This document shows positions 28,129 to 28,541 of a stretch of 64,000 bases of DNA, piece by piece; position 1 is the stretch's first letter, and each line of letters opens with the position of its first letter. Source of the stretch: Nitrospiraceae bacterium. GTDB lineage: Bacteria; Nitrospirota; Thermodesulfovibrionia; Thermodesulfovibrionales; UBA1546. The translations under genes were made by a program, and so were the position numbers. The notes beneath the pieces were generated by a model that was given only the letters and a program-made list of their open reading frames with translations, ran no database searches and was not told the origin of the DNA. The stretch covers positions 1 to 64,000 of the forward strand of contig JAJFTJ010000018.1 in the NCBI GenBank assembly GCA_021373015.1, read 5' to 3'.

Positions 28129-28201
28129 TGGCGGGGTGGATCCCGATCAAATCGGGACGACCTACCACTATTTTACCTGAAGGCGTTCTGACCAGCTGAA
28201 C
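28129..28201 (-). pseudogene. Rearranged tRNA-Asp copy downstream of the GIY-YIG gene
   Basis: On the minus strand this stretch repeats the intact tRNA-Asp at 28465-28541 in two blocks. GTTCAGCTGGTCAGAACGCC (28201 to 28182) equals nucleotides 10-29, and the 3' acceptor with discriminator and CCA (28140 to 28129) is identical. Between them the anticodon arm is lost, and the T arm is replaced by TCCCG-ATTTGAT-CGGGA, again a 5-bp stem with a 7-base loop. The 5' acceptor strand is replaced by coding sequence of the GIY-YIG gene. It cannot be a working tRNA-Asp. Confidence 0.7.
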
Positions 28202-28439
28202 CAATCAAATTCAAAAGCATATCTTTCCTGTGTAAAGATTTGAGAGCAATTTCTCTTTTAACAGCCTGAGAGCGGGATTCAAATTCTTCAGAATACAGCA
28301 ATTTCCATGGACGCTTAGGTTTTGTATATCTGGAATGACCTTGATTGTGTCTATTAATCCGTTCTTGAAGACTATTTGTCTGCCCAACATATAAGGAATT
28401 ATCTTTCAGACTCTGAATAATATAAACAAAATAACTCAT
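28173..28439 (-). CDS. GIY-YIG nuclease family protein next to tRNA-Asp
   Basis: The 88-residue protein from the ATG at 28439 begins MSYFVYIIQSLKDNSLYVGQ, giving the paired Y-x-Y/Y-V-G of the UPF0213-type GIY-YIG family. RINRHNQGHSRYTKPKRPWK and the catalytic-Glu helix (SQAVKREIALKSL) follow. The frame continues upstream through the tRNA-Asp, but that part is tRNA sequence and not protein. The last dozen residues (IGSAGQNAFR) and the stop come from the second tRNA-Asp fragment. Small GIY-YIG proteins of this type are common but little studied; the flanking tRNA pieces suggest a tRNA-targeting mobile gene. Confidence 0.85.
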   Translation of the reverse strand: MSYFVYIIQSLKDNSLYVGQTNSLQERINRHNQGHSRYTKPKRPWKLLYSEEFESRSQAVKREIALKSLHRKDMLLNLIGSAGQNAFR

Positions 28440-28464
28440 CGAAATTTTCCCAAAAGAAAAGGTA

Positions 28465-28541
28465 TGGCGGGGTGGACGGGGCTCGAACCCGCGACCTCCG
28501 ACGTGACAGGCCGGCGTTCTGACCAGCTGAACTACCACCCC
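28465..28541 (-). tRNA. tRNA-Asp (anticodon GTC)
   Basis: Complete cloverleaf: acceptor GGGGTGG/CCACCCC, anticodon loop CTGTCAC with GTC, T-loop TTCGAGC, encoded CCA. Parts of it are repeated 300 bases downstream around the end of the GIY-YIG gene. Confidence 0.97.

What the first reader, a model, noticed from the sequence alone, without database searches (positions are those of the whole stretch)
28129..28541. GIY-YIG nuclease gene lodged between an intact tRNA-Asp and a second, rearranged tRNA-Asp copy
Seen: directly downstream of tRNA-Asp (minus strand) lies a small GIY-YIG gene, and its 3' end runs into a second copy of tRNA-Asp sequence. A 20-base block (28182-28201 vs 28513-28532) and a 13-base block (28128-28140 vs 28464-28476) are identical. 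The tail and stop codon of the protein are tRNA-derived. Known: GIY-YIG enzymes include homing endonucleases. Inference: the gene may be a mobile element that cuts tRNA genes and keeps the target intact by carrying tRNA parts, a class that seems little described.
Basis: partly seen in the sequence, partly recalled or inferred. Interest (0 to 1): 0.74.

Follow-up and report, generated by a model that had tools for sequence, protein, structure and literature searches.

The report
Tiny nuclease gene hitched to tRNAs
A very small nuclease gene sits beside a working tRNA gene together with a broken tRNA copy, and the same arrangement recurs beside 31 kinds of tRNA gene in several bacterial phyla, including sites where close relatives lack it, so it looks like an almost undescribed type of very small mobile element.

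Summary
An 88-aa GIY-YIG gene (28173-28439, minus strand) lies between intact tRNA-Asp and a broken tRNA-Asp copy whose T arm is replaced by the palindrome TCCCGATTTGATCGGGA.

It is not a one-off. Among 170 non-redundant GIY relatives from several phyla, 107 lie within 200 bp of a tRNA or tmRNA gene, 106 of them on the same strand (67 of 80 among the best-scoring). They cover 31 anticodon classes. In 73 of 101 testable cases the far side carries a fragment of the same tRNA (3.4 expected by control). Broken copies carry perfect palindromes in place of tRNA arms or loops (53 of 65 junctions; 8 expected). GIY lineages follow tRNA isotype (47 changes against 70 shuffled).

Same-genus comparison shows insertion: G007 carries a 361-bp insert exactly behind tRNA-Ser(CGA) that G004 and G011 lack, and its broken copy is foreign.

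Best reading: a minimal mobile unit, an Slx1/UPF0213-like nuclease plus a broken tRNA copy that supplies homology. Movement and cutting are inferred, not shown. Tail-only tRNA copies without GIY in sister genomes are the main caveat. Closest analogues: phage SegB and fungal mitochondrial mobile ORFs. No prior description was found in open-access papers.

The parts
28465..28541 (-). intact tRNA-Asp(GTC), the retained working copy (upstream end of the unit)
   Evidence: ARAGORN; Rfam 67.8 bits
28173..28439 (-). GIY-YIG nuclease gene, 88 aa (P0001); catalytic-type residues Y6, Y17, G19, R27, H31, E63, K67 all present
   Evidence: Pfam PF01541 E 1.9e-20; residues near-invariant in 101 relatives; dN 0.075 / dS 0.59 against G004
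28182..28201 (-). tRNA-Asp nt 10-29 (D arm) of the broken copy; also encodes the tail GSAGQNA of the GIY protein
   Evidence: 100% identity over 20 nt
28158..28163 (-). AGGTCG, remnant of the variable region of the broken tRNA copy
   Evidence: sequence; compare L034, L035, L060
28141..28157 (-). palindrome TCCCGATTTGATCGGGA in place of the T arm of the broken copy
   Evidence: one of only two TCCCGA-n-TCGGGA palindromes in this genome
28129..28140 (-). tRNA-Asp nt 66-77 (acceptor 3' strand and CCA) of the broken copy, distal end of the unit
   Evidence: 100% identity over 12 nt
28565..28640 (-). tRNA-Val(TAC), probably same transcription unit; neighbour, not part of the element; the tRNA-Val/tRNA-Asp pair is conserved in the family

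Best explanation
This is one copy of a widespread, very small mobile unit made of a domain-only GIY-YIG nuclease gene plus a partial, hairpin-broken copy of the tRNA gene beside which it sits. The unit inserts at the end of a tRNA gene: behind the CCA in one architecture, or at the 5' end with the broken copy in front in the other. One intact tRNA is left, so the host survives. Proposed mechanism (inferred): the nuclease, related to UPF0213/Slx1 and so probably selective for structured or branched DNA rather than a long sequence, nicks or breaks tRNA-gene DNA, which can fold into hairpins. The tRNA copy carried by the unit then supplies the homology by which recombinational repair copies the unit in. 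This explains the fixed orientation, the position at tRNA ends, the isotype fidelity and the tandem arrays. Hairpin replacement of arms in the extra tRNA copy lowers its homology to the intact tRNA, and perhaps its cleavability, so the unit is less easily deleted by recombination between the two copies. Shown: association, architecture, empty versus occupied sites, a foreign tRNA copy, purifying selection, intact active site, tandem arrays. Inferred: cleavage, the repair route, the role of the hairpins.
For: tRNA/tmRNA within 200 bp: 67/80 of the closest GIY relatives, 18/25, 12/31 and 10/34 in weaker classes; 106 of 107 on the same strand; same-tRNA fragment on the far side in 73/101 against 3.4 expected. 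31 anticodon classes, 46 phylum x anticodon combinations. Isotype is clustered on the GIY tree: 47 changes, shuffled mean 69.8, 0 of 200 as low. Occupied/empty at tRNA-Ser(CGA) within one genus: G007 has 361 bp directly after CCA, G004 and G011 do not; flanks about 90-91% identical over 1.6 and 1.2 kb; the distal tRNA copy is foreign (T stem GGGGG/CCCCC and 3' acceptor CCTCTCC, native CAGGG/CCCTG and CCCCTCC) while the intact copy equals the empty allele. Occupied/empty at tRNA-Ala within genus g2: G010 and G008 against G006 and G001. tRNA-Asp site: G000 and G004 occupied, clean in G003, G013, G014, G002 and others. In 72 tRNA genes drawn by tRNA, fragments go with GIY: 8 of 11 against 2 of 61, Fisher p 6e-7. 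Palindrome in 53 of 65 broken-copy junctions against 8.3 shuffled; TCC..GGA type in 39 against 1.2. Tandem GIY arrays: L015, L080, L184, L202, L203, L143. Nearest solved structures: UPF0213 1zg2 (1.9e-18), Slx1 7cq2 (1.9e-10), I-TevI 1mk0 (0.0025). Phage SegB, a GIY-YIG enzyme, sits near tRNAs and drives tandem amplification of tRNA+segB through microhomology of the tRNA 5' end and the segB 3' end (PMC13096335).
Against: No activity was tested. The intact tRNA in occupied and empty sites is identical (tRNA-Ser) or nearly so, so classical homing immunity by target disruption is not explained. Hairpin-bearing tRNA tails occur without GIY in sister genomes, and similar palindromes occur in other intergenic repeats and in G006, which has no GIY relative; the palindromes are therefore not exclusive to the GIY unit. 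One tRNA-Ser site (L247) has an unrelated 70-aa ORF between tRNA and a tRNA 3' tail, so other agents can leave the same footprint. 28 of 101 associated loci show no far-side fragment. Phage relatives H1 and H2 are not beside tRNAs.
Confidence: 0.62

Rival explanations
1. The nuclease is a classical free-standing homing endonuclease that recognises and cuts the tRNA gene sequence itself; broken copies are scars of cutting and homing.
For: Isotype fidelity of GIY lineages; palindrome breaks cluster in the anticodon and T arms; SegB precedent (PMC13096335).
Against: A domain-only protein of about 80-90 aa with no sequence-reading domain; the intact tRNA beside the gene is unaltered, so the host would remain a target; one family serves 31 anticodon classes.
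Confidence: 0.2
2. The GIY gene is only a passenger: tRNA ends are general integration hot spots, another recombinase (or plain tandem duplication of tRNA ends) inserts small cargo, and GIY is frequent because it is small and rides on tRNA transcription.
For: Same-strand placement inside the tRNA transcript; tail duplications without GIY; another ORF in the same kind of slot (L247).
Against: No integrase in the 361-bp insert; specific, repeated partnership of one protein family with tRNAs in several phyla; GIY lineages track tRNA isotype; catalytic residues conserved in about 100 copies.
Confidence: 0.13
3. The gene has a host or defence role (for example tRNA-gene repair or dosage, or an anti-phage nuclease) and is kept next to tRNAs for co-expression; the repeats are by-products.
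For: Purifying selection; SegB shows a dosage role for tRNA+nuclease amplification in a phage (PMC13096335).
Against: Patchy within genera; broken tRNA copies serve no dosage role. No defence-family search was made.
Confidence: 0.05

Closest known systems
Phage T4/T6 SegB, free-standing GIY-YIG homing endonuclease (PMC13096335)
   Same: GIY-YIG gene beside tRNA genes; shared sequence between the tRNA 5' end and the 3' end of the gene; tandem amplification of a tRNA+nuclease unit
   Different: Phage genome; no hairpin-broken tRNA copies were met in the passages read. Here: chromosomal, bare domain, 31 anticodon classes, a broken tRNA copy inside the unit
Mobile ORFs of fungal mitochondria with duplicated gene ends (Allomyces atp6; Glomus atp6, atp9, cox2, nad3; PMC3630166)
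   Same: Endonuclease ORF inserted at the end of an essential gene, the gene kept whole, a displaced or foreign piece of the target gene present
   Different: Protein-coding targets, longer elements, LAGLIDADG in the atp6 case; there the inserted C-terminus replaces the native one, here (G007) the native tRNA is untouched and the foreign piece is the distal one
UPF0213 / Slx1-like GIY-YIG proteins (1zg2, 1ywl, 7cq2; PMC1564403)
   Same: Closest sequence family among solved structures; single-domain small proteins
   Different: No tRNA-gene link found in the passages read of the superfamily survey; its standalone Slx1-like bacterial members are discussed with a methyltransferase neighbour
tRNA-end integrative islands with tyrosine recombinases (own knowledge)
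   Same: Insertion behind the CCA end, direct repeats of the tRNA 3' end, tRNA kept functional
   Different: No recombinase, 361 bp instead of many kb, distal copy broken by palindromes
Mobile mitochondrial palindromes (yeast mobile DNA family, PMC4478555; double-hairpin elements, term found in PMC7218506)
   Same: Short palindromes in non-coding and RNA-gene sequence (own knowledge beyond the abstracts seen)
   Different: Organellar; no link with tRNA copies next to a nuclease gene was looked for here

Membership tests
GIY-YIG nuclease superfamily | GIY-YIG domain with catalytic Tyr, Arg and Glu | tested here: met
   PF01541 E 1.9e-20; Y6, R27, E63 conserved in 96-101 of 101
UPF0213 / Slx1-like subgroup | best profile match to UPF0213 or Slx1 among solved structures, single domain | tested here: met
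   1zg2 1.9e-18, 7cq2 1.9e-10, I-TevI only 0.0025
Free-standing homing endonuclease (SegB type) | present or absent at the same site in close relatives | tested here: met
   tRNA-Ser G007 vs G004/G011; tRNA-Ala G010 vs G006/G001
Free-standing homing endonuclease (SegB type) | cuts the allele that lacks it | not testable with these tools
   needs purified protein
Free-standing homing endonuclease (SegB type) | own allele protected because the target is disrupted or altered | tested here: not met
   the intact tRNA-Ser next to the insert is identical to the empty allele over 90 nt; protection by flanking context is not excluded
Target-fragment-carrying mobile ORF (Allomyces/Glomus type) | foreign piece of the target gene carried with the endonuclease ORF, working gene kept | tested here: met
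   foreign distal tRNA-Ser half in G007; one site only
Target-fragment-carrying mobile ORF (Allomyces/Glomus type) | carried piece replaces the native end of the gene | tested here: not met
   the native tRNA is whole and the foreign copy is distal
tRNA-site integrative element | site-specific recombinase gene in the insert | tested here: not met
   the 361-bp insert of G007 holds only the GIY ORF
Group I intron-encoded endonuclease | ORF inside a self-splicing intron | tested here: not met
   no intron family in Rfam at this locus

The most novel reading that the evidence does not exclude
A categorically new kind of mobile element of about 360 bp: a structure-selective, Slx1-like mini-nuclease plus a hairpin-broken tRNA copy, which integrates at the ends of structured RNA genes (tRNAs, perhaps tmRNA and RNase P RNA) by exploiting their hairpin-forming DNA. 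Palindromes that swap tRNA arms would be part of the mechanism, as landing sites, cleavage products or locks against deletion.
Probability: 0.3. Interest if true: 0.92.

Novelty: new variant of a known kind. Interest (0 to 1): 0.8.

Why it matters
If true, tRNA genes across Bacteria (Nitrospirota, Bacteroidota, Peregrinibacteria-type, Acidobacteriota and others) are parasitised by what may be among the smallest self-sufficient mobile elements, now annotated only as 'GIY-YIG nuclease family protein'. It would tie a common gene family without a clear role to a concrete mechanism, extend the SegB idea from phages to cellular genomes, and explain broken tRNA copies and hairpin repeats beside tRNA genes. 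It also makes a question directly testable: whether a bare GIY-YIG domain can direct integration through DNA structure and carried homology rather than sequence reading.

Tried and rejected
Tandem tRNA duplication with a chance ORF: rejected, because the ORF is a conserved nuclease in many genomes, under purifying selection. Hairpin as a genome-wide repeat of the window's genome: rejected for G000 (2 sites) but true in some relatives (105 sites in G254 against 3 in the control). Hairpins made by GIY: not supported (G006 has 31 such palindromes and no GIY relative). Campbell-type integration of a circle with one full broken tRNA: considered, but 3'-type units lack the tRNA 5' end and 5'-type units lack the 3' end, so a plain circle does not fit. 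tmRNA neighbours: GIY 136-157 bp behind tmRNA in four genomes without any fragment, so probably a different relation. RNase P: two GIY genes 17-24 bp in front of rnpB on the same strand, with only one 18-nt fragment in L229; suggestive only. Phages and plasmids: 21 and 13 records with relatives under 60% identity; two phage cases examined, neither beside a tRNA. Literature: open-access full text searched for GIY-YIG with tRNA genes, downstream of tRNA, Patescibacteria, pseudo-tRNA and more; the only tRNA-gene analogue found was SegB. No structure prediction was run, as the fold is clear from profiles.

Full report
OBSERVATION. In the window the minus strand reads tRNA-Val, tRNA-Asp, GIY-YIG gene, broken tRNA-Asp copy. 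The gene (28173-28439, 88 aa) matches only PF01541 strongly (E 1.9e-20). Between them the copy keeps AGGTCG, and its T arm is replaced by the palindrome TCCCGATTTGATCGGGA (28141-28157); a palindrome of this type occurs at only one other place in the 1.69-Mb genome. The protein tail is D-arm-derived; the stop codon itself is just outside the identical block.

THE PATTERN IS GENERAL. Relatives were taken from the family, order and phylum of the host, from GTDB species representatives, and from the phyla of a Bacteroidota (Flavisolibacter) and a Peregrinibacteria hit. ARAGORN on the loci and a joint count give 170 non-redundant GIY genes at 60 bits or more. Of these, 107 have a tRNA or tmRNA gene within 200 bp, and 106 of the 107 are on the same strand. 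By score class the counts are 67/80 (95 bits or more), 18/25, 12/31 and 10/34. The profile was built mostly from tRNA-linked members, so the score gradient partly reflects kinship; the tRNA itself is not part of the profile. My own rough estimate for random placement is about 3% or less. The tRNA-linked genes cover 31 anticodon classes and 46 phylum x anticodon combinations.

FAR-SIDE COPIES. In 73 of 101 loci with a testable flank, a fragment of the same tRNA lies on the far side of the gene; tRNAs of another isotype give 3.4. The intact tRNA is upstream in 59 and downstream in 43 cases. In 33 of 101 genes the stop codon falls in tRNA-derived sequence, often at tRNA nt 8 (the conserved U8-A9 reads TAG), nt 20-21 or nt 36.

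HAIRPINS. At 65 junctions where tRNA segments of a broken copy are separated by a short insert, 53 inserts hold a perfect stem of at least 5 bp (shuffled mean 8.3, maximum 13), and 39 hold a TCC(C/G)...(C/G)GGA palindrome (shuffled 1.2). Examples: tRNA-Asp nt 1-27 + palindrome + nt 45-77 (L035/L115, L060), tRNA-Asn nt 1-24 + palindrome + nt 35-76 (L017, L080, L089). Outside Ser/Leu tRNAs the T arm (19) and anticodon arm (15) are hit most. Similar palindromes also sit elsewhere in some genomes, apparently in loops of other intergenic hairpin repeats (L147, L150, L152, L153), and they are abundant in G006, which has no GIY relative. They are thus a second layer, not a product exclusive to the GIY unit.

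INSERTION SHOWN BY EMPTY SITES. tRNA-Ser(CGA) in one genus: G007 is occupied, G004 and G011 are empty, with flanks about 90-91% identical over 1.6 kb and 1.2 kb. The insert is 361 bp, starts directly behind the CCA, and contains the GIY ORF, tRNA nt 26-36, a 29-bp double hairpin and tRNA nt 37-90. The intact copy in G007 equals the empty allele over all 90 nt. The distal copy has a different T stem with changes on both sides (GGGGG/CCCCC instead of CAGGG/CCCTG) and a different acceptor strand, so it derives from another working tRNA-Ser. tRNA-Ala(GGC) in genus g2: G006 and G001 are empty, G010 and G008 carry GIY units in the two opposite architectures, G012 has a tail only; in another genus G004 has a 45-bp tail where G011 has none. 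tRNA-Asp: G000 and G004 carry GIY, several genomes are clean, and G006, G001, G012 and G010 carry a hairpin tail without GIY. Across 72 tRNA genes sampled by tRNA, a detectable fragment goes with a GIY gene (8 of 11 against 2 of 61, Fisher p 6e-7); the very short tails escape this threshold and are reported from inspection.

LINEAGES AND TARGETS. On a tree of 101 GIY proteins (few columns, many open forks) the isotype label needs 47 changes against a shuffled mean of 69.8 (0 of 200 as low), with cross-phylum groups for Leu and Ser. Vertical inheritance within phyla contributes to this.

MECHANISM. Active-site residues are near-invariant and selection is purifying (dN 0.075, dS 0.59 against G004), so the protein is under constraint for some activity. 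It has no added DNA-binding domain and is nearest to UPF0213 and Slx1. I therefore favour structure-directed nicking or breakage at tRNA genes, with the carried tRNA copy giving the homology for repair-driven insertion. Tandem arrays of GIY + tRNA fragments (L015, L080, L143, L184, L202, L203 and others) resemble SegB-driven amplification in phage T6, where tRNA-Tyr and segB amplify through microhomology of the tRNA 5' end and the segB 3' end (PMC13096335). Mutual homology of two tRNA copies would normally delete the unit; hairpin-broken copies may be the ones that last. Cleavage, repair and the role of the hairpins remain inferred.

COMPARISON AND NOVELTY. It works like a free-standing endonuclease that travels with a piece of its target gene, as in Allomyces and Glomus mitochondria (PMC3630166), but there the carried end replaces the native one and here it does not. 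The classical homing rule that the occupied allele is altered at the target is not met. The phylogenomic survey of GIY-YIG proteins was searched for tRNA, neighbourhood and context terms, and no passage reports a tRNA-gene link (PMC1564403). No open-access paper found describes the chromosomal tRNA-linked units; subscription journals and preprints were not searchable.

Noticed in passing
L247:1591-1900 (G003:C7): Behind tRNA-Ser(TGA) lies an unrelated 70-aa ORF without any Pfam match, followed by a tRNA-Ser 3' tail (nt 58-89): the same footprint with different cargo.
   Followed up: partly
L019, L084, L113, L227: GIY genes lie 136-157 bp behind tmRNA on the same strand in four genomes of at least two phyla, without tmRNA fragments.
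   Followed up: partly
L220:1501-2388 and L229:993-1710: GIY genes 17-24 bp in front of RNase P RNA on the same strand; both rnpB matches (651 and 491 nt) are longer than the 367-position model.
   Followed up: partly
L256:1577-1850 (G010): Four tandem copies of a 67-bp unit, a tRNA-Ala 3' end with its T arm replaced by TCCCGATTCATCGGGA, behind the intact tRNA-Ala.
   Followed up: partly
G254 (whole genome): 105 TCCCGA-n-TCGGGA palindromes against 3 in the control; a dispersed palindrome family of unknown origin.
   Followed up: partly
L043:3001-3236: GIY gene of Candidatus Desulfatibia vada looks frameshifted but is still flanked by tRNA-Asp and a hairpin-broken tRNA-Asp copy.
   Followed up: no
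L002 (G000:C10): The window's own genome has a second such unit beside tRNA-Ala(GGC), with two remodelled tRNA-Ala copies in front; its GIY protein is only about 45% identical to the window's.
   Followed up: partly
window 25156-28119: Three genes (a 212-aa membrane-type ORF and a two-gene amino-acid-type ABC transporter) lie between the MEMO1-like gene and the GIY/tRNA-Asp unit in this genome; in several relatives MEMO1 follows the tRNA directly.
   Followed up: no
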